64,000 nt of DNA, from positions 62,001 to 126,000 of the forward strand of contig JBAMDO010000003.1 of the NCBI GenBank assembly GCA_037074765.1. Reading direction: 5' to 3'. A program made the translations under genes and the position numbers. The stretch's first letter is position 1. Each line of letters begins with the position of its first letter. Below the pieces are notes generated by a model. It saw nothing but the letters and a program-made list of their open reading frames with translations, made no database searches and was not told where the DNA came from. The stretch comes from Mansonella perstans. Taxonomy: Eukaryota > Nematoda > Chromadorea > Rhabditida > Onchocercidae. Positions 19,769 through 64,000 of the stretch are shown here, in pieces.

Positions 19769-22700
19769 ATCAGAATGAATTTCTCCACCGTGTGGAAACA
19801 AAATGAACTATTTTGGTCGGGAATTTAATTTCTGTTCTATTTGTCGAGTAACTCGAAGAAAAGTCTTCAAATATTAATTGGTTGTATATTATTTCCAACA
19901 TCTTATACATACGATATCCATTTATTTTTCATATTGGTTATTATACACAAATTGCGCTTCAAACCCAAGCGAACTTCGACCGTTTTACAGTTATCCTAGC
20001 ATCTCTCTGCAGTGAACTGTATTTCTATTGATTATACAATGCCTCTCCTAAATTGGTAATCAAATTTTTTGCAATGCTTGTATTTTGCAATAGCCTTCCA
20101 TCGATTGTTAATCCAGCTATTTACGTATGTGGATTTTTAAAATCAAACCTTTATCAAAGGAGTTTTTTATTTAAAATCTTCCAATACTATATCTATGTTA
20201 AATTACTAACCAACAATACTCCGATACTGTAGCCTATTTTCAATCTATTAAAGGACAATACGTAAATTATGGGAATAATGTAAACAACTCCTACAATAAA
20301 AACTAGAGAATACCTAAAATAGAGAGTTTATCAACAAGATATTGGATTTACACTGTTCATTTCTGATTAGCTCTTTCAGATTATCCCAAAATTGTTTTTG
20401 CAAGGCATTCAAACCAACTCAGTGGTTGATCTTACATATTGTAATTGGCAGTGCTATCTCTGCTGACCACTAACAAAGGATGGACTTCAACGTGAAGCGC
20501 AACTCCTAAAACTTTCTCAAAAACTTGTCTTATTAGTCCCGTGATGTTCTCATTCTGTCAGAAAAGATCATCAGTCTTTATTGCTTACACATTCACATTT
20601 GTCATAATATCACTTTAAAGTTTACTTCATGAAGTCAAGAGTGTTTTTCACGAACAACACCGGATTCCTTTCCAGAACAGGCAGTCTTCCATCTTCCGTA
20701 TCACAATGTGTCAATATTGCTGCAATCACAGTTGCAATTACATGGTGTCATCAAAAAAAAATTATTATATAATCTATTTTGCATGTAATTGAAGGAAGTT
20801 GACGAATAAAATTGCAAGTTTAGATTGGAAGAAAAAATTATTAAATTAGAATTTTGAAATAACCAATTATTCAACATTAAATGGTAACAATGTTCAATTG
20901 TTAATGGTCTAGACGTACATTTTCCTACTTGCGTTATTATTTGGCCATCATCCCATAACGTGGTGACTGTATGGTTTGTGAAAGCACCTGCAATTGATAT
21001 CAGAGTTTGTGATATATTTCTTTTTTGAATTGAATCAATAGAATTAGAGAGATCTGTTTTATGACCTTTCAGAGAATAACTTCTTCAATTTATAATGATG
21101 ATGGACTATCATTGTGATTTCTAGCTTCTCCGAATGAACTTCTCTGAATTTTTAAGACTTACCGCCCATAACACTGATGATGGCTCTCTGCTCTTGTTGC
21201 CGGCTACAAAGGATGAGTAAAGCAAGATACACTATTAGCTTTGCCATATTTGAATTTGTTCGTGTTGAAATCTAAAATACTACCTTTCAGAAATGCAAAC
21301 ATTGCGAAATGCACACTGTTTCATTAATTTGTTAATTTGTAAACTTTCATCGAGTTCGACTTATTTCAAGCGATTTTTATATTACGGTTTCTTCAGAAGA
21401 TACAGATAAAATTCATTTTCTGATTTTAATTAAAACAAAATGACTTTGACGGAATCGTCAGTACTGAAAAGATTTGCTTTATGATTGTTTATTTTGCCAA
21501 GCCCTTCATGTAGAACTGCGTGGAATGAAGTCTGAATTCTGAAGTCACTAGGAGCATTTTCCGCAGCAGGGAAAGGTAAGCAGTTATACTAATGAAATCC
21601 CTTTATGGTATGCAACTTTTTAAAAATAAGTAATTAATTTTCTAAATGCGTAATTTTGAAATAACCGAAATTAAATTTGTTTCCCAATCGCAAATTCATT
21701 GATTATCAATTTCTCTACCTGATGACAAGTTGCATTTTTTCTCGCAGAAAGTCTGCTGAAATCACTGTTGAAACTTATAAGTTAATGAGCTCAATTCAAT
21801 TTCTCAATGAATGTGAAGGAATAATTCATTGTTAAAACAAAAAATAAAATAGGTACATCGTCTTGGAAAATAACTAGAAAACCCAACAGAGGAATTTAAT
21901 GAATTCAATAAATATATTCGCTTCCATTATCAAAATTAACCTTTCGTGTTACTGAGAATGTCAAATCTTTACTGTGAATATTAATGAGGGCAATGAACAC
22001 AAATTAATGAGTATTTACCTTTCTTGAAATCAAGTAATTCTCCTTATGCTAAATAAAGTTAATTTGGAAGTTTTAAGCCAAACGAAATATTTTCGCCCAA
22101 TCAACTGAGGAAAATTTCCGTCTAAATAACTAGTTGATAGGTAATCATTCTTAAGGACTGCTTCAATCAAAATTTAGCACAGCAACTCCTACTGGTATTT
22201 ACGATATTCTCCAAATCTCTGAAACACCGAGCATTTGTTTAACCAATGAAAACTATGAATCATTTTGAGAAATTGAAATTGCAGTTTTATTCTGCAAAAG
22301 CGGAACCAATTCTTTTGTGCCGTAGTACAGCACCAATGAATATAACCTGTTCTATGTTGTGAAGACGTTCAAAAGAATCCTTTTTTTCTGCAGCTTCTTT
22401 TTTCAGCATTTCCAGGTTGAGTGGTAAGACAGTGGATTACGGAAAATAAGTAGAAAAAAATTTGATATATGGGATAATTATAAAACTAGGTTTCAGCTTT
22501 CCAGTTGTTTTATTTTGTAGAGATAAAAAATTATTAGTGATCGTTTTTCATAATTTAAAAAAATATAACTAGTTCCTTTAAACAATTAATTTTGCGGTAC
22601 CGGAAGTCAAATTAGTCATTTTTCTGAAATCACTGCAATTTGAATTTAGAAATGAATCTGCTGATTTCTAATTATCCATATTCCAAGGTTACGGAAGTTG

Positions 22701-22930
22701 TTCCTGTGCTATGGCCGAATCTCTTAATATTTGTTGCAAAAAGTTTTAAACTATTGTAAAAGTCGCCTATGCACTGTGAAATTCCTTTCTTTTTTTGTAT
22801 GAAAGCTATATTTTTGTCTGCAAGTAAAGTTGTTTCAGAAAGTTAGCTAAAAATGGTAAGCTGGAAAATAAGTGAATTTATCTCTGAGATGAAAGAATTG
22901 ATGGGATTTGTTTAATATCAATTTCTATCA
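19769..22930 (-). repeat. Duplicon copy b, inverted, with intact small secreted gene
   Basis: Minus-oriented unit. 19,769-20,620 is the 3' flank (also at 34,930-35,830 direct and 27,720-28,560 inverted), 20,622-21,247 is the gene, and 21,270-22,930 is the 5' flank. The phrase ACTCCTACTGGTATTTACGA near 22,190 marks the flank in many copies. Confidence 0.75.
20622..21247 (-). CDS. Small secreted protein, MAKLIVYL family, copy 1 (intact, 83 aa)
   Basis: Unrecognised family. Minus-strand exons are 21163-21247, 20919-20987 and 20622-20719, with both introns in phase 1. Residues 1-13 (MAKLIVYLALLIL) form a signal peptide ending near CS. A short polar stretch (RQQEQR), AIISV, the core GAFTNHTVTTLWDDGQIITQ with an N-glycosylation sequon (NHT), and the tail LTHCDTEDGRLPVLERNPVL follow, ending LDFMK. 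Intron boundaries are GTAAG...GCAG and GTACG...GCAG. An AATAAA follows the stop in the related copies; here it is slightly altered. Relative to most copies exon 3 is one codon shorter. Probably exported from the cell; role unknown. An antisense open frame over exon 3 recurs in several copies and is considered a shadow. Confidence 0.72.
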
Positions 22931-23214
22931 GTTTCTATCATATTTTAACGAAAAATAAAATGAACACATTCTCTAAATGAAATATTTATAGACGAAACGA
23001 AAAGATGAAAAAATAAATTGAATTCACTGCTAGATTAGCGCATTCAGTCTTCTGATGGCTGTACAGTGGATAAATTTTCTAGTACTTGGAAATAAATGAA
23101 TTAAATAAGGCAGTTATTCATATTGATTTCATGAAATCAAATGATAATTAGAAACCTGAATGGAATTTAATCTAGAATTTAATTCAGCTGAAATTTAATT
23201 CAATGAAATTTGAA

Positions 23215-23850
23215 CTGATAATCAATTTGTTTTAAAAGATTTAATATTTTTTTTTTAAGAAATTCATTTTGAAAAATTCAGGTCAAAATTGGGACTGTAA
23301 GCCAAAATATTTTTCATTATAGCTTCTCAACCGATATCAATTTCAATTGCAGCGGATTTCACAGACCATACAGTCACCACGTTAAGGGATGATGGCCAAA
23401 TAACAACGCAAGTAGGAAAACGTATGTCTAGACCATTGAGAATTGAAAATATATACACTTAATATTGAATAACTGGTTATTTCAAAATTCTAATTTGATA
23501 ATTTTTTCTTCTAACCTAAATTTGCAAATTTATTCGTCAACTTCTTTCGGTTAAATAATAGATTATATAATTATTTCTTTTTGATGATACAAGGTAATTA
23601 CAATTATAACTATAATTGCAGCAATACTGACACATTGTGGTACGACGGAAGATGGAAGACTGCCTGTTCTGGAAAAGAATCCGATGTTGTCCTTGAAAAA
23701 CACTCTTGATTTCATGAAGTAAACTTTAAAGTGATATTATGACAGATGTGAATCTGACAGAATGAGAACATCACGGAACTAATAAGACAAGTTGTTGAGA
23801 AAGTTTTAGGAATTGGCCTTCACGTTGAAGTCGTGCTTTGTTGTTGATTC
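23215..23850 (+). repeat. Duplicon copy c, truncated chimera
   Basis: Begins like SIRT2 intron 7 (same as 31,560-31,650) but breaks near 23,330 and continues directly into exon 2 of the small secreted gene. The preceding 22,930-23,215 segment is a direct repeat of 31,220-31,560, so the junction arrangement (minus unit, spacer, plus unit) itself was duplicated. Confidence 0.7.
23353..23722 (+). pseudogene. MAKLIVYL-family copy 2, lacks exon 1
   Basis: Only exon 2 (23353-23421) and exon 3 (23622-23722) are present. Exon 2 reads ADFTDHTVTTLRDDGQITTQ, with the sequon changed and W to R. Exon 3 reads LTHCGTTEDGRLPVLEKNPM and remains open to LDFMK. The signal-peptide exon is replaced by SIRT2 intron sequence, so a secreted product is not expected. 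Confidence 0.75.
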
Positions 23851-24263: not shown

Positions 24264-24342
24264 ACTTACCTTTCCGTCATCTTTTCCCATCATTTCATGA
24301 ACGCAATAGTTGCGATTTCATGGGCTGCTAATTGATATGTCA
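24264..24342 (-). pseudogene. Fragment of CHK1 exon 13
   Basis: Read on the minus strand, the GAAATGATGGGAAAAGATG core and flanking positions match the exon of CHK1 at 45,590-45,685 (EMMGKDG in the KA1 region), including a GTAAG after it. The copy is diverged and isolated. The surrounding 23,850-24,340 is an inverted relative of 43,690-44,000. Confidence 0.6.
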
Positions 24343-25170
24343 AAAAAAGGAAATTTTGTCTCGCATATTCAGATACTTAGCACGACTGTTAGTTAAACCT
24401 CTCCTCAATGTGCTACAATGCATAATCTTAATTGAAAAAAAACAGTTGTTGACTTCATTTCGCATTAAAAGAAAAATCTAATAAGAAACCGAGTGGTAAT
24501 GCAAGGCTAATGACTAATCAAACCGAGTATAATATGTTCAATAAATTATGTGAAAAAATAAACGATCAATATGTCGAATCAAAGCTAATTTAATTTTTTT
24601 TCACGTCAAATAAATCATTTCGTTTAGTGATAGTGAAAGCAAATTTGATTTGTGTGCTTCAATTTTAATTAGTTTTAATAATTACTCCAAACGACACATA
24701 TTGTTTTCTTTTGTTACAGCAAATCTAATTCGAAATATAAATAAAATGACCGAATGCATCAATATTTTTGCTTTTTAACTAAGCTTGATATGATGGGAAA
24801 AGAAAAAAAAAATGGAATTAAATAAATGGGTACATTCTGGCTGGAGAACAGCAAGGAGAATTTGTGTCAAAAATTGAAATGACTTTGAAAATAAATTACC
24901 TAAAAACAAATGTCGCTGCATCACCAACTTTTATGAAGATTCCTTTTCACTTTCCGCAATAATGTTTTTTTTTTTTTTTACAACAAAGTATCAACAATTG
25001 TCAGTAACATTCAAACAACTTTCATAACATCGAAATCTAATTTGAAAGGAAGTCAGCACATTTTTTTAAAATTCATTTCAAGTATCGCAAAACTACACAT
25101 TTAGAGAAATCAATTATTTTCTCTAAACTAGTTATTTTTCTCTAATTTTTGGAAAAAGATTACTGATGGA
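24343..25170. other. No gene seen
   Basis: AT-rich sequence that I could not match to another part of the window. It holds only short homopolymer runs (poly-T at 24,966-24,979). Confidence 0.4.
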
Positions 25171-25392
25171 CGATGGGCTGATCCCGGAGGCAAGTGCAAT
25201 GCCGGGTCGACCCGTGATGGGTGAAGAGCAAGCCCCTAAAAATCCATTATGATGTCAAAAATAGAATAATCTCGAAGTGGTCGATAGATTACATATCAGA
25301 GATTAAGCTGATAAAAACCGATACTATACTTTGAATAACTTGTTGTTACTGGACTAAGAAATGCGGAAATTAAGATGCCGAAGAAAAAATGC
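25171..25392 (-). pseudogene. U2 snRNA-like sequence, probable pseudogene
   Basis: Read on the minus strand, order and sequence follow U2 snRNA: a 5' TTCTTCGGC, then AGTATAGTATC and TTTTTATCAG (branch-site recognition region and beyond), TCTGATA, an Sm-site-like GGATTTTTAGG, GGGGCTTGCTC (stem III) and GACCCGGCATTGCACTTGCC with CCGGGATC (stem-loop IV). It is a GC-rich island in AT-rich DNA. Against the U2 I remember, the branch-recognition GTAGTA is changed to ATAGTA. About 30 unrelated bases interrupt the 5' domain, and the Sm site is imperfect. These points favour a pseudogene over a working U2 gene. Confidence 0.72.
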
Positions 25393-25799: not shown

Positions 25800-28560
25800 T
25801 TCAGTGATTTCGAAGAAATGACTAATTTGACTTCGAGCACCGCAAAATTAATTCTTTAAAGGAACTAATTATATTTCTTTAAATTATGAAAAAGGATTAC
25901 TGACAATTTTTAATCTCTGCAAAATAAAATAACTTGATAGCTAAAATCTAATTTTATAATTGTCCCATACAACAGATTTTTTCTACTTATCTTCCTAATC
26001 CATTTTTTACCACTCATCGTGGAAATGCTGAATAAAGAAACTGCAGAAAAAAATATGTTCATTGGTTCCGCACGTCGGCACAAGAAAATTGCTTCCGCTT
26101 TTTAAGAAAAAAACTGCAATTTTAATTTCTCGAAATCATTCATAGTTTTCATTAGTTATGCAAATTCTCGGTGTTTCAGAGGTTTGGAGAATGTTGTAAA
26201 TACCAGTAGGAGTTGTATGACTGAAGCGATTTTAAGAGTGATAGTCCATTAAATGAAAATTTTTCTTGATCGATCAAGTGAAAATATTTTGTTGATTTAA
26301 CGTACCTGAATTAAATTTCATTTAGCATAAAAAAATCTCTTTATTAGTCCTTTATTAAAATCTATTTTATTTAAATCCTTTATTAAAATATTAATCCTTT
26401 ATTAAAATCCTTTGTGCTCATTTCCTTCACAAATATTCACGGTAAGGATTTGACATCCTTAGAAACACAAAATGTTAGTTTTGACAATGGAAGTGAAAAA
26501 TGTTTATTGAATTCATTTTAAAAAATTGCATTTTTCCTTCATATTCATTAAGAAATTGATTCCACCTCATTAACTTATAAGTTTGAACAATAATTTCAGT
26601 AGAATTTCAGGACATAAAATTATTTTGAGAAAAAGCAGATTGTGATTAGTTACAGAAATAATTCATCAATGAATTCTCGATTAGGAAACAAATTTAATTT
26701 CAGTTATTTTTATTAAAAAGTTGTATTGAAAACAGTGATTTCATTCACATAATTGCTTATCTTTCTCTGCTGCGGAAAATGCTCTTAGCAAATTCACAAT
26801 TCAGACTTCATTCCACGCAGTTCTACACGAAGGGCTTGGCAAAATAAACAATCATAAAGCAAATCTTTCCAGTATTGACAATTCCGTCAAAATCATTTTG
26901 TTTTGATTAAAATCAGAAAATGAATTTTATCTGTATCTTCTGAAGAAACCGTAATATAAAAATCGTTTGAAATAAGTCGAACTCGATGAAAGTTTACAAA
27001 TTAACAAATTAATGAAACAGTGTGCATTTCGCAATGTTTGCATTATTTTAGATTTCAACACGAACAAATTCAAATATGGCAAAGCTAATAGTGTATCTTG
27101 CTTTACTCATCCTTTGTAGCCGGCAACAAGATCAGAGAGCCATCATCAGTGTCATGCCCGGTAAGCTTTAAAAATTCAGAGAAGTTCATTCAGAAAAGCT
27201 AGAAATCAAAATCTTGAATTATGCGAGTGATAATTTATTATCACAGGTGAATTGAAAAAGTATTTTCTGAAAAGTCATAAAGCAAATCTCTCTAATTCTA
27301 TCGATTCAATTCAAAAAAGAAATATATCACAAACTCTGATATCAATTGCAGGTGCTTTCACAAACCATACAGTCACCACGTTATGGGATGATGGCCAAAT
27401 AATAACGCAAGTAGGAAAACGTATGTCTAGACCATTGAGGATAGAACACATTTACCACTTAATGTTGAATAATTGGTTATTTAAAATTTTAATTTAATAA
27501 TTTTTTCTTCCAACCTACTTGCAAATTTATTCGCCAACTCCTTTCAATTACGTACAAAATAGATTATATAATTATATCTTTTTGATAATTCAATGTAATT
27601 ACAATTGTGATTGCAGCAATACTGACACACTGTGATACGGCGGAAGATGGAAGATTGTCTGTTCTGGAAAAGAATCCGATGTTGTTCGTGAAAAACACTC
27701 TTGACTTCATGAAATAAACTTTAAAGTGATTTTATGATAAATGTGAATGTGTAAGCAATAAAGACTGATGATCTTTTCTGACAGAATGAAAACATCACGG
27801 GACTAATAAGACAAGTTGTTGAGAAAGTTTTAAGAATTGCTCTTCACGTTGAAGTCCATGCTTTATTGTTGGTCAGCAGAGATAGCACTGCCAATTACAA
27901 CACGTAAGCTCTACCATTGGATTGGTTTGCATGTCCTGCAAAAATAATTTTGGTAAAATCCGAAAGAACTAATCGCAAATGAACAGTGGAAATCCAATAT
28001 CTCGCTGATCAACTCTCCATTTTAGGTATTCTCTAGTTTTTATTGTAGTTTACATTATTCCCATAATTTACGTATTGTCCTTTAATAGATTGAAAATAGG
28101 CTACAGCTCGGAGCATTATTGGTTACAGTAATTTAACATAGTTATAGTATTGGAAGATTTTAAGTAAAAATCTTCGTTGATAAAGGTTTGATTTTAAAAA
28201 TCCACATACTGTAAATAGCTGGATTAACAATCGATGGAAGGCTATTGCAAAATACAAGCATTGCAAAAAATTTGATTACCAATTTAGGAGAGGCATTGTA
28301 TAATCAATAGAAATACAGTTCACTGCAGAGAGATGCTAGGATAACTATAAAAGGGTCGAAGTTCGCCTGGGTTTGAAGCGCAATTTGTGTATAATAACGA
28401 ATATCAAAAATAAATGGATATCATATGTATAAGATGTTGGAAATAATATACAACCAATTACATTATTTGAAGACTTTTCTTCGAGTTACTCGACAAATTG
28501 AACAGAAATTAAATTCCCGACCAAAATAGTCCATTTGTTACCACACCGTGGAGAAATTCA
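25800..28560 (+). repeat. Duplicon copy d: left arm of palindrome 1
   Basis: Plus-oriented unit: 5' flank 25,800-27,050, small gene 27,076-27,717, 3' flank to about 28,560. It is the inverted counterpart of 28,680-31,060, with about 120 bp of unrelated sequence between the arms. Confidence 0.8.
27076..27717 (+). CDS. Small secreted protein, MAKLIVYL family, copy 3 (intact, 84 aa)
   Basis: Exons 27076-27160, 27352-27420 and 27617-27717, phase-1 introns. Signal peptide MAKLIVYLALLIL, then CSRQQDQRAIISVMP, the core GAFTNHTVTTLWDDGQIITQ, and LTHCDTAEDGRLSVLEKNPM, ending LDFMK. TTTTAG about 25 bases before the ATG is a likely trans-splice acceptor. AATAAA lies about 40 bases after the stop. An in-frame alternative exon 2 could begin at 27,247 (after TATCACAG) and run straight into the normal exon 2, adding 35 residues starting ELKKYFLKSHKANL. 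That extension is open here and in copy 8 but broken in several other copies, so the short form is preferred. Confidence 0.75.
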
Positions 28561-28679: not shown

Positions 28680-31190
28680 TTTATAGTTATCCTAGCATCT
28701 CTCTGCAGTGAACTGAATTTCTATTGATTATACAATGCCTCTCCTAAATTGATAATCAAATTTTTTGCAATGCTTGTATTTTGCAATAGTCTTCCATCGA
28801 TTGTTAATCCAGCTATTTATAGTATGTGGATTTTTAAAATCAAACTTTTATCAACGAAGTTTTTTACTTAAAATCTTCCAATACTATAACTATCTATGTT
28901 AAATTACAGTAACCAACAATACTCCGATACTGTAGCCTATTTTCAATCTACTAAAAGACAATACGTAAATTATGGGAATAATGTAAATAACTCCTGCAAT
29001 AAAAACTAGAGAATACCTAAAATAGAGAGTTCGTCAACAAGATATTGGATTTTCACTGTTCATTTCTGATTAGCTCTTTCAGATTATCCCAAAATTGTTT
29101 TTGCAAGGCATTCAAACCAACTCAATGGTTGATCTTACATATTGTAATTGGCAGTGCTATCTCTGCTGACCACTAACAAAGCATAGATTTCAGCGTGAAG
29201 CGCAATTCCTAAAACTTTCCCAACAACTTGTCTTATTAGCCCCATGATGTTCTCATTTTGTCAGAAAAGATCGTTAGTGTTTATTGCTTACACACTCACA
29301 TTTATCATAAAATCACTTTAAAGTTTATTTCATAAAGTCAAGAGCGTTTTTCACGAACAACATCGGATTCTTTTCCAGAATAGACAGCCTTCCATCTTCC
29401 GCCATACCACAGTGTGTCAGTGTTACTGCAATTATAGTTGCAATTACATTGTGTCATCAAAAAAAATTGTATATTTTGTATGTAATTGGAAAAAGTTGAC
29501 GAATAAATTTGCAAGTAGGTTGGAAGAAAAAATTATAAAATTAAAATTTTAAATAACCAATTATTCAACATTAAATGGTAGATGTGTTCTATCCTCAATG
29601 GTCTAGACATACATTTTCCTACTTGCGTTATTATTTGGCCATCATCCCATAACGTGGTGACTGTATGGTTTGTGAATGCACCTGCAATTGATATCAGAGT
29701 TTATGATATACTTCTTTTTTGGAACGAATCGATAGAATTAGAGAGATCTGTTTTATGATCTTTCAGAGAATAACTTCTTCAATTTATAATGATGATAGAC
29801 TATCATTGTGATTTCTAGCTTCTCCGAATGAACTTTTCTGAATTTTTAAGACTTACCGCCCGCAACACTGATGATGGCTTGCTGATATTGTCCTCCGTCC
29901 TCCTCTCCATTATGGTGGCGAGAACAACAAATGAGTAAAGCAAGATACACTATCAACTTTGGCATATTTGAATTTGTTTGTATTGTAATCTAAAATGATG
30001 CCTTTCAGAAATGCACACTGTTTCATCAATTTGTTAATTTGTAAGCTATCAGCGATTTCGACTTATTCCAAACGATTTTGAGTGAAATGAAGTCTGAATT
30101 GTTTTGTATAAAACTTTTTGATAAAAATTAATTCATTTTCTAAATGCATAGTTTTGAAATAGCTGAAATCAAATTTTTTTCCCAATCGAGAATTCATTGA
30201 TGACTTATTTTTGTAACTAAGCTGCTTTTTCTCAAAATAATTTTATGTCCAGAAATTCTACTGAAATCATTGTTGAAACTTATAAGTTAATGAGCTGGGA
30301 TTTTCTCAATGAATATGAAGGAACAATGGATTATTAAAGCCAAAAATAAAATAGGTACATCATCTTGCAAATAACGAGAAAACCCAACAGAGAAATTTAA
30401 TAAATTCAATAAATACATTCGCTTCCATTATCAAAATTAACCTTTCGAGTTTTTGAAGATGTCAAATCCTTACTGTGAATATTAATGAGGGAAATGAACA
30501 CAAATTAATGAAGTATTCACCTTCATTTTTTCCTAATGCTAATAAAGTTAATTTGGAAGTCTTAAGCCAAACGAAATATTTCTGCCCAATCGGTTAAGGA
30601 AATTTCCGTCTAATTACCAATTAATATCATTCTTAAGAATCGCTTCAGTCGAAATTTAGCACAGCAACTCCTACTGGTATTTACGACCTTTCCCAAACTT
30701 CTAAAACACCGAGCATTTGCCTAACTAATGAAACCTATGAATGACTTCGAGAAACTAAAACTGCAGTTTTATTCTTCAAAAGCAGAACCAATGAATACAG
30801 CCTGTTTTGTGTTGCTAAGACTTTTTTTTTAGCTTCTTTGTTAGCATTTCCAAGTTGAGTGGTAAAACACAGATTGGGTAGGATAAGTAGTAAATAATTT
30901 AATGTATGGGACAATGATAAAACTAGATTTTAGCTATCCATTTATTTTATTTTACAGAGATAAAAAATTATCAGCAATCTTTTTTCATAATTTAAAAAAA
31001 TATGACTAGTTCCTTTAAACAATTAATTTTGCAGTGTCCGAAACCAAATTTATCATTTCTCTGAAACCATTCGCCTACTATGAAATTCTTTTCTGTCTTT
31101 TAAGAAAGCTATATTTTTATCTGTAAGTAAAGTTGCTTCAGAAAGTTTAATAAAAATGATAAGTTGGTAAATTAAGTGGAATCATTCCCA
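28680..31190 (-). repeat. Duplicon copy e: right arm of palindrome 1
   Basis: Minus-oriented unit: 3' flank 28,680-29,320, gene 29,325-29,965, 5' flank to about 31,190. It then leads through a 31,200-31,560 spacer (also at 22,930-23,215) into the plus-oriented copy f. Confidence 0.8.
29325..29965 (-). CDS. Small secreted protein, MAKLIVYL family, copy 4 (intact, 92 aa)
   Basis: Minus-strand exons 29857-29965, 29613-29681 and 29325-29425, phases 1 and 1. The start is MPKLIVYLALLICC (A to P at residue 2). The variable stretch is the longest in the window, SRHHNGEEDGGQYQQ, before AIISVAG. The core GAFTNHTVTTLWDDGQIITQ is unchanged. The tail is LTHCGMAEDGRLSILEKNPM, ending ALDFMK. The exon 1 insertion is a whole number of codons. 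AATAAA is altered in this copy (AATAAACAC context). Confidence 0.74.
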
Positions 31191-31730
31191 AGATGAAAGA
31201 ATTGATGGACTTTGTTTAATATCAGTTTCTATAAGTTTCTCTTATTTTGCAACAAAAAATAAAATGAACATATTCTCTAAATAAAACATTTATGGACGAG
31301 AAATCAACAACGAAAAGCATGAAAAAAAATAAATTGAATAGATTGAAATTGAATTCACTGCTAGAATAGCGCGTTCAGTCTTCTGATGGCTGTACAGTGG
31401 ATAAATTTTCTAGTACTTGGAAATAAATGAATTAAATAAGGCAATTATTCATATTGATTTCATGAAATCAAATGATAATTAGAAATTTCAATGGAATTTA
31501 ATCTAGAATTTAATTCAGCTGAAATTTAATTCAATGAAATTTGAACTGATAATCAATTTGTTTTAAAAGATTTAATATTTTTTTTTTAAGAAATTCATTT
31601 TGAAAAATTCAGGTCAAAATTGGGATTGTAAGCCAAAATATTTTTCATTGCAGATTCTCAATTGAAGTTGTGATTTCTCTGTTTTGTTTAACATTTGTAA
31701 TTAACATAATTCACTCGCAACCATTTTTAG

Positions 31731-31959
31731 AGACGTATTTTGGCAAGGCACAACAAACGATGGTGCTTGGAAACTGGCAGAATTATTGGGGTGGACGGCA
31801 GAGCTTAAAAAGTTAGTAGAGACGGAATGGAAGAATATTGATGAGAGGGAGAAAAAGGATCAAAAAAATGTCAAATCTGCTGTTGCAACAATTGATGTTA
31901 CGAGTGAAAAATCAGTTGAGCGTGACAAATCAGTTGATGAGAGTCCAAAAGAATCTTAA
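31731..31959 (+). pseudogene. Duplicated terminal exon of SIRT2, open frame
   Basis: Same 229 bp length and splice acceptor as SIRT2 exon 8 (17757-17985), with three base differences seen, one changing Asp to Asn (QGTTDD to QGTTND). The reading frame to the stop is intact. No other sirtuin exon precedes it locally, so alone it is a fragment. Since it lies downstream on the same strand with an acceptor, splicing from SIRT2 exon 7 to it is possible in principle. The high identity marks a recent duplication or gene conversion. Confidence 0.85.
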
Positions 31960-33279
31960 AATGTATGTATAAATTGATTCTGCTTTTTTGTTCTGACAAT
32001 ATCATTATCAGATGAATATACAGAAATTGTTTTTTTCCAACTTTGTTTTTGTTTTTTCAGTCTAATAATGTCTGACGTGAACTTTAAGCCAATATGTGGT
32101 TGTCTTAAAAATTCTCTTATCAAGAAATCTACATCAAATAGCGTTGGAGCCTTTAATAATGACGATTCTACCAAGCTATATTTCCAACTTTTTCTTTGGA
32201 ATTGTGTTAATGTAATTTGTGTGTTTTTGTAACAATTCATACATGTTAGTAAAAATGCTGTACAATAACGCCGACAATAAAATTTGGACAAAGTCCATCA
32301 ATTCTTTCATTATGGGGATAATTCCACTTAATTTACCAACTTATCATTTTTATTAAACTTTCTGAAGCAACTTTACTTACAGATAAAAATATAGCTTTCT
32401 TAAAAGACAGAAAAGAATTTCATAGTAGGCGAATGGTTTCAGAGAAATGATAAATTTGGTTTCGGACACCGCAAAATTAATTGTTTAAAGGAACTAGTCA
32501 TATTTCTTTAAATTATGAAAAAAGATTGCTGATAATTTTTTATCTCTGTAAAATAAAATAAATGGATAGCTAAAATCTAATTTTATCATTGTCTCATACA
32601 TTAAATTCTTTTCTGCTTATCCTACCTAATCTGTTGTTTTACCACTCAACTTGGAAATGCTGAAAACGAAGCTACAAAAAAAAGTCTTAACAACACAAAA
32701 CAGGCTGTATTCATTGGTTCCGCTTTTGAAGAATAAAACTGCAGTTTTGATTTCTCGAAATCATTCTTAGTTTTTATTAGTTAAGCAAATGCTCTGTGTT
32801 TTAGAAGTTTGGGAAAAGTCGTAAATATCAGTAGGAGTTGCTGTGCTAAATTTTGATATCCTTAAGAATGATATAAATTGATCAATTAGACGGAAATTTC
32901 CTTAACCGATTAGACAGAAATATTTACCGTTTTCCTGCTGTGGAAAATGCTTTTGGCGACTTCACCATTCAGATTTCATTCCAGCAGTTCTACATGAAGT
33001 GCTTGGCAATATAAACAATCATAAAGGAAATTCTTTCAGTACCGAAAATTCCGTCATTCAAGAAAAAATCTTCAAGTCATTTTTGCGTTAATCAAAACCA
33101 GGAAGTGAATTCTATCTTTATCTTCTGAAGAAATCATAATATAAAAATCGTTTGGAATAAGTCGAAATCGCTGACAGTTTACAAATTAATGAAGCAGTGT
33201 GCATTTCGTAATGTTTGCATTTCTAAAAGGTAGCATTTTATATTTCAACACGAACAAATTCAAATAAACAAATTCAAAT

Positions 33280-33822
33280 ATGGCAAAGTTGATAGTGTAT
33301 CTTGCTTTACTCATCTTTTGTACCTGGCAACAAAATAAGAGAGCTTTCATCAGTGTTATGGGCGGAAGGTAGAAATCACAATGATAATCCATCATAATTG
33401 ATAAATTGACGATGTTATTCTCTGAAAGGTTATAAAGCAAATCTCTCTAATTCTATCGATTCGATCCAAAAAAGAAGTATATCATAAACTCTGATATCAA
33501 TTGCAGGTGCTTTCACAAATCATACAGTCACCACGTTATGGGATGATGGACAAATAATAACGCAAGTAGGAAAACGTATGTCTAGATCATTAATGCTGAA
33601 TAATTGGTTATTTCAAAATACTAATTTGTCAATTTTTTCTTCCAATCTGAACTTGCAAATTTATTCGTCAACTTTTTCCAATTACATACGAATAAGATTA
33701 TATAATTATTTCTTTTTGGTAATATAATTACAATTATGATTGCAGCAATACTGACAGATTATGGTACAGAGAAGGATGAAAGACTGCCTTTTCTAGAGAA
33801 GAATCCAATGCTTTTCCTATGA
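33280..33822 (+). pseudogene. MAKLIVYL-family copy 5, degraded
   Basis: Exon 1 (from 33,280) gives MAKLIVYLALLIFCTWQQNK, but the donor is lost: GGCGGTAAG has become GGCGGAAGG and the following intron is shortened. Exon 2 (33507-33575) is intact. Exon 3 (33746-33822) reads LTDYGTEKDERLPFLEKNPM, losing the conserved Cys, and ends early at LF-L-stop, without the FVKNTLDFMK tail. Confidence 0.75.
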
Positions 33823-33930
33823 AACACCCTTGTTTTGATAAAGTAAATTTCGAAGGGAAATTAAGCAGTAAAAATTGGTGGTTTTATCTCGACGAGAGCA
33901 CTAAAACACTAATAAGATAATGCTTATTAA

Positions 33931-34929: not shown

Positions 34930-37900
34930 TACGTTTTCCTAATAGTGTCAACCCTTTTGCTAAGATAGATGAATCAGAATGAATTTCTCCACCGTGTGGA
35001 AACAAAATGGACTATTTTGGTCGGGAATTTAATTTCTGTTCTATTTGTCGAGTAACTCGAAGAAAAGTCTTCAAATATTAATTGGTTATATATTATTTCC
35101 AACATCTTATAAACATGATATCTATTCACTTTTGATATTGATTATTATACATAAATTGTTATATATAAATTATTATATATAAATTGCACTTCAAATCCAG
35201 ACGAACTCCGCCCGTTTTATAGTTAAACTAGCATCTTTCTCCAGTGAACTGTATTTCGATTGATTATACAATGCCTCTCCTAAATTGGTAATCAAATTTT
35301 TTGCAATGCTTGTATTTTGCAATAGCCTTCCATCGATTGTTAATCCAGCTATTTACCGTATGTGGATTTTTAAAATCAAACCTTTATCAAAGGAGTTTTT
35401 TATTTAAAATCTTCCAATACTATAACTATGTTAAATTACTGTAACCAATAATGCTCCGAGCTGTAGCCTATTTTCAATCTATTAAAGGACAATACGTAAA
35501 TTATGGGAATAATGTAAACTACAATAAAAACTAGAGAATACCTAAAATGGAGAGTTGATCAGCGAGATATTGGATTTCCACTGTTCATTTGCGATTAGTT
35601 CTTTCGGATTTTACCAAAATTATTTTTGCAGGACATGCAAACCAATCCAATGGTAGAGCTTACGTGTTGTAATTGGCAGTGCTATCTCTGCTGACCAACA
35701 ATAAAGCATGGACTTCAACGTGAAGCTCAATGACTAAAACTTTCTCAACAACTTGTCTTATTAGTCCCGTGATGTTCTCATTTTGTCAGAAAAGATCATC
35801 AGTCTTTATTGTTTACACATTCACATTTGTCATAATATCACTTTAAAGTTTATTTCATGAAGTCAAGAATGTTTTTCACGAACAACATCGGATTCTTTTC
35901 CAGAACAGGCAGTCTTCCATCTTCCGTATTACAATGTATCAGTATTGCTACAATCACAGTTGTAATTACATTGAATCACCAAAAAAAAAAAAAAAAAAAA
36001 ATCAAATAATCTATTTCGTATGTAATTGAAGGAAGTTGATGAATAAAACTGCAAATTTAGGTTGAAGAAGAAGTCAACAAATCAGAATTTTGAAATAACC
36101 AATTTTTCAAGATTAAATGGTGACAGTGTTCAATCTCAATAGTCTAGACATACATTTTCCTACTTGCGTTATTATTTGGTCATTATCCAATAATCTGGTG
36201 ATTGCGTAGTTTGTTATAGTATCGCCACCTGAAATAGATATCAGAGTTTGTGACAAATTTTACTTGGATGTAATTAACAGAGAGATTTTGAGAGATTTGC
36301 TTTATGAACTTTTAGAGGATAATTTCTTCAATTCATAAATGATGATAGATTATCATTTTGCATAATTCAAGATTGCGATTTTTAGTTTCTCTGAATGAAC
36401 TCTGAATTTTTAAAGCTCACCGACAATGACATGGCTGATTGTCTGATTTTGTTCGGGAGAACAAAAAATGAGTAAAGCAAGATGCAATATCAACTTTGCC
36501 ATATTTGAATTTTCTAATATTTGAATTTGCTTGTATTGAAATCTAAAATGCTATTTTTCAGAAATGCAAGCACTGCGAAATGCACACTGTTTCATTAATT
36601 TTTAATCATTAATTTGTAAACTGTCAGCGATTTCAACTTATTCAAATGATTTTTATATTATGGTTTCTTCAGAAGATAAAGATAGAATTCACTTCCTGGT
36701 TTTAATTAACGCAAAAATGACTTGAAGATTTTTTCTTGAGTGGCGGAATTTTCGGTGCTGAAAGAATTTGCTTTATGATTGTTTATATTGCCGAACCCTT
36801 CATATAAAATTGATTGAAATGAAGTCTGAATTATGAAGTCTCTAAGAGCACTTTCTTTTCAATGATCTAAATGAAACCCTGTTTTTTGTACACAGCTTTT
36901 TAATAAAAAGTAATTATTTCGAAACGCATAGTTTTGAAATTAAATTTGCTTCCCAATCGATAATTCATTGATGATTTTCTGTAACTAATGACAAACTGCT
37001 TTTTCTTAAAATAATTTTAGTCTAGAGAGTCTGCTGAAATCATTGTTGAAACTTTATAACTTAATGAGCCGGAATCAGTTTCTTAATGAATATGAAGGAA
37101 CAATGGATTGTTAAAATAAAAAACAAAATATACACATCATGTTCATAAATAAAAAGAAAGCCCAAACAGAAAAATTCAGTGAATTCGAATATATTCGTTT
37201 CAATTTCTAAAACCAATCTTTGGTGTTTCTCAGGAAACCAAATGCTTACCATGAATGTTAATAAGGGAAATGAAAATAAATTAATGAAATATTTGCTTTT
37301 CACTTTTCCTTAAAATCAAATGATTCTTTTTATACTAAATGAAATTTAATTCAAAAGCCTTAGGTCAAACAAAATAACCACCTATTAATTGATATGTAAC
37401 TCTTACTGGTGTCTCAAATTCCATATTGATACGCTCCAATCAATCAACAAAAATGATTGGAGCATCACGTATCCACAGGAAAAGACGGAAGAAAAAGATA
37501 AGTATGAAGAGATTGTCGATGATTATAGAGGCCTTTTAAAGGTGAAAAAAAAAAAAAAATTTGTTTACTAGGAGAAAGTCGCTGTACCATGAGAGTTATA
37601 CTCATCAATGACATGTCGAGAGTGCAAAACATTAAAAAAAATAACGTTTTATTTTTTTCGAGTTACTGCCTAAATCGCGGAAATTCCCAGCATTTGTATC
37701 ATTGATGAAGAAATCTGGTGAAACTATAAGTGACTTCAAAAAATTAAATTTGTAGTTTTAATTCTTCAATAACGGAACCGGAACCAAAATTCAAGTTGAT
37801 TTTTTATTCTCTAGTAACGGAGCCTCATTATCGGAACCAATAAATATAGACATCTTATGTTGTAAAGCGATTCCGTTTTTTTGTTCTCTGACCTCTTTTT

Positions 37901-40738: not shown

Positions 40739-41384
40739 TTATTTCATGAAGTCAAGAGTGTTTTTTACGAACAATATCGGATTCTTTTCCAGAACAGACA
40801 GCCTTCCATCTTTCCCCATACCACAGTGTGTCAGTGTTACTGCAATTATAGTTGCAATTACATTGTGTCATCAAAAAAAATTATATATTTTGTATATAAT
40901 TGGAAAAAGTTGACGAATAAATTTGCAAGTTCAGATTGGAAGAAAAAATTGGCAAATTAGAATTTTGAAATAACCAATTATTCAACATTAAGTGGTAAAT
41001 GTATTCAATCCTCAATGGTCTAGACATACATTTTCCTACTTGCGTTATTATTTGGCCATCATCCCTTAATGTGGTGACTGTATGGTTTGTGAAAGCACCA
41101 CCTGCAATTGATATCAGAGTTTGTGATATATTTCTTTTTTGAATTGAATCGATAGAATTAGAGAGATTTGCTTTATGACTTTTCAGACAATAACTTTTTC
41201 AATTCAATTGTGGTAATAAATTATCACTTGCATAATTCAAGATTCTGATTTCTAGCTTCTCTGAATGAACTTCTCTGAATTTTTAAAGCTTACCGGTCAC
41301 ACCGATGATGGCTCTCTGCTCTTGTGGGTCCCGTTGCCCCGAACAACAAATGAGTATAGCAAGATACACTATCAACTTTGCCAT
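40739..41384 (-). CDS. Small secreted protein, MAKLIVYL family, copy 7 (intact, 87 aa)
   Basis: Minus-strand exons 41294-41384, 41030-41101 and 40739-40839, phases 1 and 1. MAKLIVYLAILICCSGQRDP, then QEQRAIIGVT. Exon 2 has one extra Gly codon: GGAFTNHTVTTLRDDGQIIT (W to R). The tail is LTHCGMGKDGRLSVLEKNPI, ending TLDFMK. The extra codon arises from GTG duplication at the acceptor. The upstream intron lacks the AG that would allow the extended exon 2. Confidence 0.74.
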
Positions 41385-52188: not shown

Positions 52189-52829
52189 TTACTTCATGAA
52201 GTCAAGAGTGTTTTTCACGAACAATATCGGATTCTTTTCCAGAACAGACAGTCTTCCATCTTCCGCCGTATCACAGTGTGTTAGTGTTACTGCAATCATA
52301 GTTGTAATTACATCGTACCATCAAAAAAAAAATTATTATATAATCTATTTTGTATGTAATTGGAAAAAGTTGACGAATAAATTTGCAAGTTCAGATTGAG
52401 AAATTAGAATTTTGAAATAACCAATTATTCAACATTAAGTGTAAATGTGTTCAATCCTCAATGGTCTAGACATACGTTTTCCTACTTGCGTTATTATTTG
52501 GCCATCATCCCATAACGTGTTGACTGTATGGTTTGTGAAAGCACCTGCAATTGATATCAGAGTTTGTGATATACTTCCTTTTGGGATCAAATCGATATAA
52601 TTAGAGAGATTTGCTTTATGACTTTTCAGAAAATACTTTTTCAATTCACCTGTGATAATAAATTATCACTTGCATAATTCAAGATTTTGATTTCTAGCTT
52701 TTCTGAATGAACTTCTCTGAATTTTTAAAGCTTACCGGGCATGACACTGATGATGGCTTGCTGCATTTGTGGGCCCCGTCGCCCCGAACAACAGATGAGT
52801 ATAGCAAGATACACTATCAACTTTGCCAT
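52189..52829 (-). CDS. Small secreted protein, MAKLIVYL family, copy 8 (intact, 87 aa)
   Basis: Minus-strand exons 52736-52829, 52476-52544 and 52189-52289, phases 1 and 1. MAKLIVYLAILICCSGRRGP, then QMQQAIISVMP, core GAFTNHTVNTLWDDGQIITQ, tail LTHCDTAEDGRLSVLEKNPI, ending TLDFMK. As in copy 3, an extended exon 2 starting after TTATCACAG (about 52,649) would be open and in frame (ELKKYFLKSHKANLSNYIDL). AATAAA follows the stop by about 40 bases. Confidence 0.75.
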
Positions 52830-58055: not shown

Positions 58056-58700
58056 ATGGCAAAGTTGATAGTGTATCTTGCTTTACTCATCTTTTGTTCT
58101 GGGCATCAGGGCCAACAGAGGGAGCCAGGCCTCATCAATATCATGGCTCGTAAGCTTTAAAGATTCAGAGAAGTTCATTCAGAGAACCTAGAAATCAGAA
58201 TCTTGAATTATGCAAGTGATAATTTATTATCACAGGGAATTGAAAAAGTTATTTTCTGAAAAGTCATAAAGCAAATCTCTCTAATTCTATCGATTCAATT
58301 CAAAAAAGAAATATATCACAAACTCCGATATCAATTGCAGGTGGTGCTTTCACAAACCATACAGTTACCACGTTATGGGATGATGACCAAATAATAACGC
58401 AAGTAGGAAAACGTATGTCTAGACCATTGAGGATAGAACACATTTATCACTTAATGTTGAATAATTGGTTATTTCAAAATTCTAATTTGTCAATCTGAAC
58501 TTGCAAATTTATTCGTCAACTTTTCCCAATTACATACAAAATAGATTATATAATAATTTTTTTTTTGATGGTACGATGTAATTACAACTATGATTGCAGT
58601 AACACTGACACATTGTGGTATGGGGAAAGATGGAAGACTGTCTGTTCTGGAAAAGAATCCGATGTTGTTCGTGAAAAACATGCTTGACTTCATGAAGTAA
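58056..58700 (+). CDS. Small secreted protein, MAKLIVYL family, copy 9 (intact, 88 aa)
   Basis: Exons 58056-58149, 58341-58412 and 58600-58700, phases 1 and 1. MAKLIVYLALLIFCSGHQGQ, QREPGLINIMA, then RGAFTNHTVTTLWDDDQIIT (one extra codon; G to D in WDDG), tail LTLTHCGMGKDGRLSVLEKN, ending MLDFMK. The possible extended exon 2 is frameshifted here (GGTGAATTG reduced to GGGAATTG), which argues that segment is normally intron. AATAAA is present after the stop (58,740). Confidence 0.74.
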
Positions 58701-59706: not shown

Positions 59707-60235
59707 ATAACATTAAACTACTAAGTCTTCCTTTTTTAATGAATAATAAAATTAAATCGAATTCATCATTAACTATCATTTTATTTCATTAATATTTTTA
59801 TTTACAAAATGGGATCTTTGAATAAATTAAATGATAATTGTAATTTGATTTTGGGTTTTCATATCTTCTGAACTTAATATCGTTATATTTACTGCAAGTC
59901 AGCAGTAAATATAACGATATATATTGTGACCATTGCAGTTAACCCTTCATTCTGTTAAAGTGTCAATAACCTTTTCATTCTTTTTAATGTATGCAGAATA
60001 AGCTTTCTTGACATAATTGATCATCTGTATGCTTCCATCACTTTTGCTGCTGGATATTATTTATCTGATGCTCAAAATCAGTTATCTTAATTGACAGAGT
60101 ACAAATTAACCGTTGTCTAATTACTCTTTCTACTTCACGTGATCTTTCCACATCCTTCTACTTCCGTCATTTAATTGTTATTTTTAATTTTCTCAATTAC
60201 TCATTCTTTTTACTAACATGTAAAATAAGTTTCAG
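59707..60235. other. Junction and CHK1 intron 7 copy
   Basis: About 59,985-60,235 is the inverse of CHK1 intron sequence at 47,552-47,800. 59,707-59,985 has no match that I can see. The expected CHK1 exons 1-7 are absent at this junction. Confidence 0.65.
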
Positions 60236-61685
60236 ATTTATTACGAAAAATGTTGAATGTTTGCGAACAGAAACGAATCAAAATTCCAGAAATTGAAGAG
60301 CATGAATTTTTCCTTGAGAAGATAAGTACGTCTGATTTTACTATAAATTTCGTAATCGAGAATTAATATTAATTGTGATAGTATTTTATTTATCAAATTG
60401 CTTGTATTTTAAAATTATGAAATACCGAGTGCCAAAATGATGAGGAAAACCCTGGCACAAATAGTAAAAAGTACGGATATTGCCACACTCTGCCAGGAGT
60501 TATCAATGTTGTTCCAACTGGTGAAAATCCAACGAATTTGAAGAAAGATAATAACGCTGCAGAACCAACAAACTTATTTGGAGCGATAATAGTGGATGAT
60601 CAGAAAGAACCTGATCCAAAGAAGGCCAGACTTTCACCTTCTACTAATTTTGAAAAGAGGTAACATTTTTCGGTTTCAGTTTTCTGCTTTTATTTTTGTT
60701 ATCTAACTATGCGAATAAGCGATTTTTTGTTTGTTAAGAATTGTTTCGTAGATCCTTTTTAAAATGCTTTCAAAAAAATTGAAATCTTGAAATTTATATG
60801 ATGGTCTTTTATCTTTTAATCGGTTTTTTAATTTTTGATTAACTCTTCCTCTATATATGATATTTATCGTTATCGAGTGTAAAGAAGTGATTTTCTTGTG
60901 GTTTTTTGTTTTAGTTAATTTTTGCATAAAAACATGAAACATAACAGATCTCTCCAGCAAAAAAAATTCCAATTTTTTATCAAAATAGATTTCTAAATTT
61001 AAACCATAAAACAAAATTTCGGATTAAACTTCAATTACGGCTTTTAGAATTGAATTATCAGTGGGTGCGATTTCTCAGCCAATCCTATCTCTTGATATCT
61101 CGCAGGCAATAGAGACTTGGCAAGTTGCTAAGAAAAATGTACAAAATCAACTGAGCGTACAACTGTAATTGTTTACTGGAGTGTTCCTGCTTTTGATGAT
61201 GAAAAGTTTTTTTGAAAAATTGCGAATATATTTTTCATGAATTAATGAATCTACTTTTCATAATTTTATCACCAATTCTGCCAATTTCTGGAAAAAGTTT
61301 TTTGAAAAAAATTTCTTTATACTTTGTACTTTGTACACTGGCACTAAGTTTTAGGGAATTGAGATTGATAGAACTACTGATGCAGATCTGCTACGGTATC
61401 AATCAGGCAAGCTATAATATCATAACGGCAGCTTTCCCAAGCATCAAAATTTGAAAACTTGGAAATTAAAATAAAAATCAATGTCTTTATTTTAAAAATT
61501 AGCTTTCATGCAAGTCTGATCTATTTTTATTCTCTATTTTATTTATTACAGCATCCGTTGGCACTTCTAGCGTCGTTTGACACGTACATATGTGACGAAA
61601 CGGACTGGCGAACTGATGTCAATCATCAAAAACAGAATGGATCTCAAATTCACGTGTGTGCAACGTGCACCCAATATGGTAATTT
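60236..61685 (+). pseudogene. Inverted partial copy of CHK1 (exons 8-12)
   Basis: Exon 8 copy at 60236-60325 ([20 protein letters not shown]) and exon 9 copy near 60,420-60,661, which has 50 extra bases and a frameshift relative to the gene. Exon 10 copy near 61,047-61,114 (SVGAISQPILS). Exon 11 copy near 61,210-61,409, where RELRLIELLMQICYGINQ lacks the FFSQP segment. Exon 12 copy from 61,553, with a net 2-base loss that breaks the RRMTRF frame. No kinase N-lobe exons precede it. It cannot encode a working kinase. Confidence 0.85.
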
Positions 61686-62039: not shown

Positions 62040-62330
62040 TTTTACTGATTTCACGAACAGCATTGGATTCTTTTCCAGAACAGGCAGTCTTCCACCTTCC
62101 GCCATACCGCAATGTGTCAGTGTTACGGCAATCATAGTCGTAATTGCATTGTATCACCAAAAAAAAAATTATTATATAATCTATTTCGTATGTACTTGAA
62201 AGAAGTTGACGAATAAATTTGCCAATTTAGTTAGAAAAAAAAATTATTAAATTAGAATTTTGAAATAACCAGTAATTCAACACTAAATGGTAACAGTTTC
62301 AATCTCCATGGTCGATTTAAGACCAACTTA
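62040..62330 (-). pseudogene. Remnant of the MAKLIVYL-family gene, copy 10
   Basis: 62,040-62,150 matches exon 3 in reverse (antisense of DGRLPVLEKNPM), but the acceptor AG is changed to CG and the end of the exon is truncated. 62,150-62,300 matches intron 2, and exon 2 is replaced by other sequence near 62,310. Confidence 0.7.
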
Positions 62331-62639
62331 GGCATACTTTTAATTTGCAATATTGGGATCTGAAATTTGCTTTTCTTCTCCTGAAATGTACGTTTTACAA
62401 AACAAATACTATATCATTAATTTTTAATTTTTGTGCCATTCTAGCAAAACCCTCCTTGGATGACCTGATCACCAAAATTGGAAGGACTCTATTTATGACC
62501 TCCTGCACTACCATACCTTCTTTGAAGATTTGGTTGAAATGAATTATATTCGCGCAGAATTGGGTGAAATGAAATTTAAAATGTGAACTCAAAAAGCTTT
62601 TCTTTTCATAGGTAAAGATAACCAATTATAACTACCTGT
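62331..62639. other. No gene seen
   Basis: Short open frames on both strands, none recognisable. The end resembles the CTTTTCGCGTGACAGGTAAA region of 50,870, so this is probably more decayed duplicon sequence. Confidence 0.35.
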
Positions 62640-64000
62640 ATTCTCATATCAGATTACTGTAACCAACAATGCTGCGATATTTTAGCCTACTTTCAAACTA
62701 TTAAAAGCCAGTACGTAAATTACAGGAATAATGCAAACCAATCCCGCAATACAAACTAGAGGATACATAAAAAGGAAATTTGATCAACGAGATTTGGATT
62801 TTCACCGTTCATTTGTGATTAGCTCTTTCAGATTTTCCTGAAATTGTTTTTTCAAGACATGCGAACCAATCCAATGGTTGATTTTACGTGTGGTAATTGG
62901 CAATGCTATCTCTGCTGACCAACAATAAAGCATGGACTTCAACGTAAAGCGTAATTCCTAAAACTTTCTCAACAACTTGTCTTATTAGCCCTGTGATGTT
63001 TTCATTCTGTCAGAAAAGATCATCAGTCTTTATTGCTAACACATTCACATCGGTCATAATATCACTTTAAAGTTTATTTCATGAAGTCAAGAATGTTTTT
63101 CACGAACAACATCGGATTCTTTTCCAGAACAGACAGTCTTCCATCTTTCCCCATACCACAATGTGTCAGTGTTACTGCAATCATAGTTGTAATTACATTT
63201 TACCATCAAAAAAAAATTATTGTATAATCTATTTTGTATGCAATTGGAAAAAGTTGACGAATAAATTTGCAAGTAGGTTGGAAGAAAAAATTGACAAATT
63301 AGTATTTTGAAATAACCAATTATTCAGCATTAATGATCTAGACATACGTTTTCCTACTTGCGTTATTATTTGGCCATCATCCCACAACGTGGTAACTGTA
63401 TGGTTTGTGAAAGCAGCTGCAATTGATATCAGAGTTTGTGATATATTTCTTTTTTGAATTGAATCGATAGAATTAGAGAGATTTGCTTTGTAACTTTTCA
63501 GAAAATAACTTTTTCAAGTCACCTGTGATAATAAATTATCACTTGCATAATTCAAGATTCTGATTTCTAGTTTTTCTGAATGAACTTCTCTGAATTTTTA
63601 AAGCTTACCGGTCATGACACTGATGATGGCTCTCTGATCTTGTCCGCCTCCATCTCCATTTTGCCTGTGAGAACAACAAATGAGTACAGCAAGATACACT
63701 ATCAACTTTGCCATATTTCAATCTGTTTATATTTTAATCTAAAATGCTATCTTTCAGAAATGCAGACATTACGAAATGCACACCGTTTCATCAATTTGTT
63801 AATTTGTAAACTGTCAGCGATTTCGACTTATTCCAAGTAATTTTGAGTGAAACGAAACCTTAATTGTGAAGTTGCTAAAAGCATTTTTCGCGGCAGGGAA
63901 AGTTAAACAATTATGTAAATGAAACCACTGTTTTGTATAAAACTTCTTGAATAATTAATAATTAATTCATTTCCTAGACTTGAAAATAACTGAAATAGTT
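62640..64000 (-). repeat. Duplicon copy l, inverted, runs off the window
   Basis: 3' flank from 62,640 (like 40,440 onward), gene 63,074-63,714, then 5' flank to the window end, closest to 52,830-53,120. Confidence 0.75.
63074..63714 (-). CDS. Small secreted protein, MAKLIVYL family, copy 11 (intact, 91 aa)
   Basis: Minus-strand exons 63609-63714, 63348-63416 and 63074-63174, phases 1 and 1. MAKLIVYLAVLICCSHRQNG, a Gly-rich variable stretch (DGGGQDQR), AIISVMT, core AAFTNHTVTTLWDDGQIITQ, tail LTHCGMGKDGRLSVLEKNPM, ending ILDFMK. The extra residues relative to copy 3 are all in the variable stretch. The cluster probably continues beyond the window edge. Confidence 0.74.

What the first reader, a model, noticed from the sequence alone, without database searches (positions are those of the whole stretch)
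20622..63714. Undescribed cluster of tiny secreted proteins (MAKLIVYL family), at least eight intact genes
Seen: eight three-exon genes (20.6, 27.1, 29.3, 35.9, 40.7, 52.2, 58.1, 63.1 kb) on both strands, each encoding 83-92 residues with a signal peptide, a conserved core (usually AFTNHTVTTLWDDGQIITQ) and a conserved tail (DGRLxVLEKNP ... LDFMK). Three further copies are broken. I recognise no known family. Inference: a lineage-specific, expanding secreted family, possibly acting at a host or mating interface.
Basis: partly seen in the sequence, partly recalled or inferred. Interest (0 to 1): 0.88.

Follow-up and report, generated by a model that had tools for sequence, protein, structure and literature searches.

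The report
Filarial worm small secreted protein family
This stretch of a filarial worm's genome carries a crowd of small genes, apparently for secreted proteins, whose unnamed relatives are found in the worms of elephantiasis and eye-worm disease, and each copy has its own variable front segment between two well-kept parts.

Summary
In detail: eight open three-exon genes (83-92 aa, both strands), ends as given, and three broken copies. The family continues beyond the window: 25 open models were found in this genome.

"No known family" needs amending. A profile of the spliced proteins finds 88 confident homologues, all in Brugia, Wuchereria and Loa, called uncharacterized or given discordant automatic names. 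No Pfam, PDB-sequence or fold match suggests a function. Eight literature searches aimed at the family found no description.

New here: in five groups of copies the same layout recurs: a signal-like start (78-91% mean pairwise identity), a variable linker of 10-26 residues (41-49%), a conserved body (72-92%). In the window's clade copies are mosaics, and the linker differs more than the introns on average, though not in every pair; upstream DNA is nearly as variable. Selection is purifying on the window's clade as a whole, but not distinguishable from neutral in the linker. Secretion and a host-facing role are inference.

The parts
20622..21247 (-). open gene c20, 83 aa; exons 21247-21163, 20987-20919, 20719-20622
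   Evidence: spliced model, GT/AG, phase 1/1
23357..23722 (+). broken copy: exons 2 and 3 only, no exon 1 found
   Evidence: exon-by-exon blastn, alignment
27076..27717 (+). open gene c27, 84 aa; exons 27076-27160, 27352-27420, 27617-27717
29325..29965 (-). open gene c29, 92 aa (starts MPKL); exons 29965-29857, 29681-29613, 29425-29325
33280..33846 (+). broken copy: first splice donor lost, last exon decayed; the TTTTAG before the ATG and the AATAAA at the usual place are also changed
35850..36502 (-). open gene c35, 84 aa, of the other (C37/C143) subfamily; exons 36502-36421, 36228-36154, 35947-35850
   Evidence: tree support 99/81
40739..41384 (-). open gene c40, 87 aa; exons 41384-41294, 41101-41030, 40839-40739
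52189..52829 (-). open gene c52, 87 aa; exons 52829-52736, 52544-52476, 52289-52189
58056..58700 (+). open gene c58, 88 aa; exons 58056-58149, 58341-58412, 58600-58700
62049..62124 (-). broken copy: part of exon 3; similarity to intron 2 runs on to 62313
63074..63714 (-). open gene c63, 91 aa; exons 63714-63609, 63416-63348, 63174-63074
26411..26709 (+). two blocks about 370-670 bases before the ATG of c27; the 180-base one recurs at six places in the window at 76-92%, five of them upstream of open copies (possible promoter, or just part of the duplicated unit)
   Evidence: self-blastn

Best explanation
Shown: a multi-copy gene family, found so far only in filarial worms, encoding proteins of about 80-95 residues in three parts: a hydrophobic start ending in a conserved cysteine (C14), a short linker that differs in nearly every copy, and a conserved body of about 56 residues with two Asp-Gly motifs (LWDDG, EDGR) and usually one cysteine. 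Copies multiply by local, often inverted, duplication and are mosaics of one another. Inferred: the protein is secreted; most copies of the expanded clade carry an N-glycan at an NxT site; the body binds a conserved partner, while the exposed linker is kept diverse because it meets host molecules or antibodies. So it most likely works as a set of secreted, host-facing variants on one scaffold, diversified by exchange between neighbouring copies.
For: Open three-exon models and coding indel pattern; same exons and phases in four diverged paralogues; homologues in Brugia, Wuchereria and Loa, E down to 2e-50. In 5 of 5 groups (64 rows; c35 and the four diverged paralogues left out) the linker is the least conserved part: mean pairwise identity 0.41-0.49, signal 0.78-0.91, body 0.72-0.92; distinct linkers 21 of 21, 16 of 16, 6 of 7, 9 of 10, 10 of 10. 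Mosaic copies: c52 and the 129-kb copy have identical linkers (0 of 49) with introns 5.4% apart; c58 and the 148-kb copy differ at 19 of 49 linker bases with introns 2.0% apart. Linker distances do not follow the flanking introns (Mantel r 0.18, p 0.22; r -0.15, p 0.71). Purifying selection on the window's clade (0.49; likelihood-ratio 13.5, or 7.9 without the linker). An N-x-T/S site in 20 of 21 proteins of the expanded clade, 2 of 48 others.
Against: No expression or proteomic datum was available. The linker's dN/dS is about 1 (0.76; 1.13) and omega 1 fits as well (likelihood-ratio 0.0, 1.0 and 0.1 in three sets), so selection for diversity is not shown; its synonymous sites are raised too, and part may be alignment error. 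The linker is not alone: mean difference is 0.28 in the linker but also 0.21 in the 250 bases upstream and 0.11 in the signal part; in 3 of 8 equal-length pairs the linker is less different than the introns. Exon 2 and the downstream flank are also poorly correlated with other segments, so the mosaic is not special to the linker. Core and tail taken alone do not differ significantly from omega 1 (3.0 each), nor does the second cluster (0.6; 1.8 without linker). Two AlphaFold models are poor and disagree (pLDDT 57, strands; 49, helices). TTTTAG is kept in 3 of 4 other broken copies listed, so such signals do not mark working copies.
Confidence: 0.42

Rival explanations
1. The body alone is functional; the linker is a disordered, low-complexity spacer free to drift, made fast by slippage and exchange, with no selection for diversity.
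For: omega about 1 in the linker; Ala, Gly, Gln and Asn make up most of it in Brugia and Wuchereria, and Ala, Gly and Gln in Loa; silent sites and the upstream DNA are also fast.
Against: Nearly every copy differs, in all five groups, and the average change is about four times that of the introns (0.208 against 0.054, 8 pairs).
Confidence: 0.32
2. A reproductive family (seminal fluid, spermatheca or uterine secretion) diversified by sexual conflict.
For: Fast turnover of small secreted tandem genes is common in such families (general knowledge, no call).
Against: No datum for or against; no sex or stage data were available.
Confidence: 0.17
3. Antimicrobial or symbiont-controlling peptides, for example against Wolbachia.
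For: Small, multi-copy, apparently secreted.
Against: Loa loa is Wolbachia-free (PMC12693587, passages read) yet keeps many copies; net charge of the approximate mature part is -5 to +2 in the six proteins computed, not cationic.
Confidence: 0.05
4. Not genes: a duplicated DNA repeat whose open frames are accidental.
For: Introns are about as similar between copies as exons; 10 of 16 open copies could arise by drift with p up to 0.05 under the laxest null.
Against: Indel pattern, same phases in diverged paralogues, proteins of the same length in other species.
Confidence: 0.02

Closest known systems
Uncharacterized filarial proteins such as Bm16, Bm459, Bm460, Bm9842, Bm9893, Bm10170 (Brugia malayi), QQG55_26980 to QQG55_27580 (B. 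pahangi), LOAG_19039 (Loa loa)
   Same: Length, start, variable linker, body motifs; 88 rows at E 1.4e-9 to 2e-50. The 15 B. pahangi QQG55 rows share one contig length and have partly consecutive tags, which implies tandem clusters.
   Different: 27-53% identical to c27 over the aligned part; linkers rich in Ala and Gly; N-x-T/S site in only 2 of 48 others; separate clades.
Diverged paralogues in the same genome (contigs C75, C158, C169, C529)
   Same: Three exons, phase-1 introns, similar start, and similar body motifs, not all kept in each
   Different: 35-47% identical to c27 in the two protein alignments and in tail matches, tail ends KLY, one or two per contig.
Automatic names on single members (lipocalin, transthyretin-like, DUF4440, serine hydrolase, MliC and others)
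   Same: Nothing that could be confirmed
   Different: No Pfam family over its cut-off in the 10 such proteins scanned; the one called guanine deaminase was not scanned

Membership tests
Unnamed filarial family (Bm459/LOAG_19039 type) | Full-length profile similarity | tested here: met
   88 of 91 rows at E 1.4e-9 or better (some of them partial models); the other 3 (E 0.09-0.8) are doubtful
Unnamed filarial family (Bm459/LOAG_19039 type) | Conserved start, variable linker, conserved body | tested here: met
   five groups, 64 rows
Unnamed filarial family (Bm459/LOAG_19039 type) | Same exon structure in Brugia and Loa | not testable with these tools
   no DNA of those species was fetched; a few read-through protein models only hint at introns at like places
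Lipocalin, transthyretin-like, DUF4440 and others by automatic name | Pfam domain | tested here: not met
   best E 0.066 among 22 own proteins; none over cut-off in 10 foreign ones
Known filarial secreted families (VAL/CAP, SXP-RAL-2, cystatin; recalled) | Their Pfam domains | tested here: not met
   not among the six families matched at E up to 10 by any of 22 proteins; HMMER filters drop most matches above 0.1
A fold with known function | Confident structural match | tested here: inconclusive
   0 matches at E 0.001 or better; the model itself is weak

The most novel reading that the evidence does not exclude
The cluster is a diversity store: tandem and inverted copies exchange segments by ectopic gene conversion, so that a filarial worm (and in parallel Brugia, Wuchereria and Loa) keeps renewing a hypervariable secreted surface, a form of antigenic variation that I do not know to be described in these worms.
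Probability: 0.15. Interest if true: 0.88.

Novelty: new variant of a known kind. Interest (0 to 1): 0.6.

Why it matters
It is a multi-copy, apparently secreted family, found so far only in this genome and in Brugia, Wuchereria and Loa, which cause human disease, and no description of it turned up. If host-facing, it would offer species or stage markers and a source of antigenic variety; if reproductive, a point of attack on worm fertility. Either way it makes the question of how these worms diversify their secretions testable.

Tried and rejected
A search with the single protein c27 found nothing; only profiles reached the homologues. Rfam at its gathering scores gave one U2 RNA in the window; no tRNAs by ARAGORN. 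Structure: two predictions, too weak to use; best Foldseek hit actin-capping protein, E 0.036, not believed.

Species: 266 exact copies of the SL1 leader (sequence recalled) show a nematode. The homologues' range and the size of 75.7 Mb beside 76.05 Mb for Mansonella ozzardi suggest Mansonella or kin; Cruorifilaria tuberocauda, of another group, is as close in size (75.5 Mb) (Table 1 of PMC12693587, section 8 read). Not proven.

Literature: ten searches. Two were for the species, eight for the family: gene names (33, 42) and themes (37, 60-63, 75). Hits of the eight were unrelated by title; in one, PMC5039438, passages read show a plant-nematode family. In PMC10145164 only passages were read. 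Supplements could not be searched.

Selection: the codon-model script timed out; finished runs were read; 2 of 15 comparisons are missing; omega itself was not printed; that the bracketed value fixes omega is my reading of the parameter counts.
Full report
The observation. A six-frame motif scan found the starts, cores and tails at the places given. Aligning the copies and joining exons gives eight open models of 83, 84, 92, 84, 87, 87, 88 and 91 residues on both strands; the outer ends equal the finding's coordinates. Both introns are phase 1. The second donor is GTAYGT after ...QVGK; the nearer GTAGGA runs into stops in 8 of 8. Three further copies are broken.

Genes rather than a repeat. 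Among ten open copies of one clade (seven in the window, three beyond, c35 left out), distinct gaps are multiples of three in 6 of 6 in exons and 1 of 11 in introns. A neutral decay simulation on a star tree leaves 19-30% of copies open (39% without indels), while 10 of 16 places of this clade on the contig are open; the chance is 0.0008 at 23% and 0.05 at 39% (one search had used 15, missing one fragment). A TTTTAG lies 19-40 bases before the ATG in 21 of 21 open copies, and AATAAA (19) or ATTAAA (1) within 110 bases after the stop in 20 of 21; the 33-kb broken copy has lost both at the usual places, but TTTTAG is kept in 3 of 4 other broken copies listed. That this acceptor takes the SL1 leader is inference.

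Extent. The window is C3:62001-126000 of a 75.7-Mb, 539-contig assembly with 266 exact SL1 copies. The cluster runs on to about 148.8 kb with three more open copies and two for which no ATG was found near the expected place. Contigs C37 (left 39 kb) and C143 (right end) carry a second cluster: ten open models among 19 loci examined of 23 places; segments there are up to 98% alike between the two contigs, so it may be one broken locus or partly two haplotypes. Five diverged places on C75, C158, C169 (two) and C529 share start and tail; four gave three-exon models with the same phases, the fifth gave none. That makes 25 open models (8 + 3 + 10 + 4).

Relatives. One protein found nothing. A 22-row profile found 48 proteins and a broader 29-row one 91, 88 of them at E 1.4e-9 or better. 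All 91 rows are from Brugia malayi, B. pahangi, B. timori, Wuchereria bancrofti or Loa loa. The 10 B. malayi rows that carry contig data all show one contig length, as do the 15 B. pahangi rows tagged QQG55 (tags 26980 to 27580, partly consecutive), which implies clusters there too. Automatic names disagree; Pfam gives nothing better than E 0.066 in 22 own proteins and nothing over cut-off in 10 oddly named ones; PDB sequences give nothing better than E 0.095.

Tree (69 rows: 44 of the 91 database rows, 25 own; 88 columns). The window's clade and the C37/C143 clade join at 100/100, Loa at 100/99, Brugia with Wuchereria in two sets (99/94 and 98/92), the four diverged paralogues at 98/99. Gene c35 goes with C37/C143 (99/81). 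Expansions are thus largely lineage-specific. A single origin of the 25 own rows is not rejected (p 0.55), nor shown.

Layout. In 5 of 5 groups (64 rows) start and body are conserved and the linker is not; distinct linkers number 21 of 21, 16 of 16, 6 of 7, 9 of 10 and 10 of 10. C14 is in all rows of three alignments (22, 29 and 45 rows) and at least 90% of a fourth that holds fragments; C57 is missing in some Loa rows. An N-x-T/S site lies in or near exon 2 in 20 of 21 proteins of the expanded clade and 2 of 48 others.

How copies change. Among the eight equal-length pairs of the window's clade the linker differs by 20.8% of bases on average, introns by 5.4%. The spread is wide: one pair has identical linkers, one differs by 39%, and in 3 of 8 the linker is less different than the introns. 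Over all ten copies the mean difference is 0.28 in the linker, 0.21 in the 250 bases upstream, 0.11 in the signal part, 0.05-0.09 in introns, exons 2 and 3 and the near downstream: the linker is the most variable, but not the only variable part. Nearest neighbours change from segment to segment. Linker distances are unrelated to those of the introns (p 0.22, 0.71); exon 2 and the downstream flank are likewise poorly related to other segments, whereas intron 2 and exon 3 go together (p 0.003). Ectopic exchange between copies would leave this pattern. Recent duplications are visible: 17581-18953 and 31556-32925 are 96.9% alike, and an inverted pair joins 18314-19431 with 30102-31215 at 95.1%.

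Selection. Nei-Gojobori ratios in the window's clade: signal 0.35, linker 0.76, exon-2 core 0.20, tail 0.39, all 0.49; in the second clade with c35: 0.27, 1.13, 0.47, 0.82, all 0.65. Likelihood-ratio against omega 1: window's clade 13.5 for all codons, 7.9 without linker, 3.0 core, 3.0 tail, 0.0 linker; second clade without c35 0.6, 1.8, 1.3, 0.2, 1.0; both with c35 6.8 without linker, 2.9 core, 0.1 linker, the other two not finished. So constraint is supported in the window's clade and in both together, not in the second alone, and the linker is not distinguishable from neutral. Its silent sites are also raised, which points to exchange, hypermutation or alignment error rather than selection alone.

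Function. No fold could be had. I commit, at 0.42, to secreted host-facing variants on one scaffold; the spacer and reproductive rivals remain real. The family is real, conserved across filarial genera and, by the searches named, undescribed; what it does is not shown by anything here.

Noticed in passing
25168-25362 (-): U2 spliceosomal RNA gene, 89.6 bits, inside the cluster between two copies.
   Followed up: no
16980-17982 and 31556-32925: A SIR2 (sirtuin) exon at 16980-17273; the stretch downstream, with what looks by recall like its last exon, is duplicated at 96.9% inside the cluster, with weaker matches near 23, 43, 54 and 56 kb.
   Followed up: partly
851-1129 (-) and 5547-5957 (+): Ribosomal protein L38e exon and an LSM-domain exon (Sm-D3-like by recall) left of the cluster.
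   Followed up: no
47336-47848 and 59934-60451: Inverted repeat pair of about 515 bases, 93% alike, away from the family exons.
   Followed up: no
G000:C3:15946-16197, C25, C85, C98 and other contigs: Twenty COX1-like matches, most with stops, on several contigs: perhaps inserted organelle or symbiont fragments (stops were read in the standard code).
   Followed up: no
G000:C37 left end and C143 right end: Both ends hold family copies and share segments up to 98% alike: one locus split by the assembly, or two haplotypes.
   Followed up: partly
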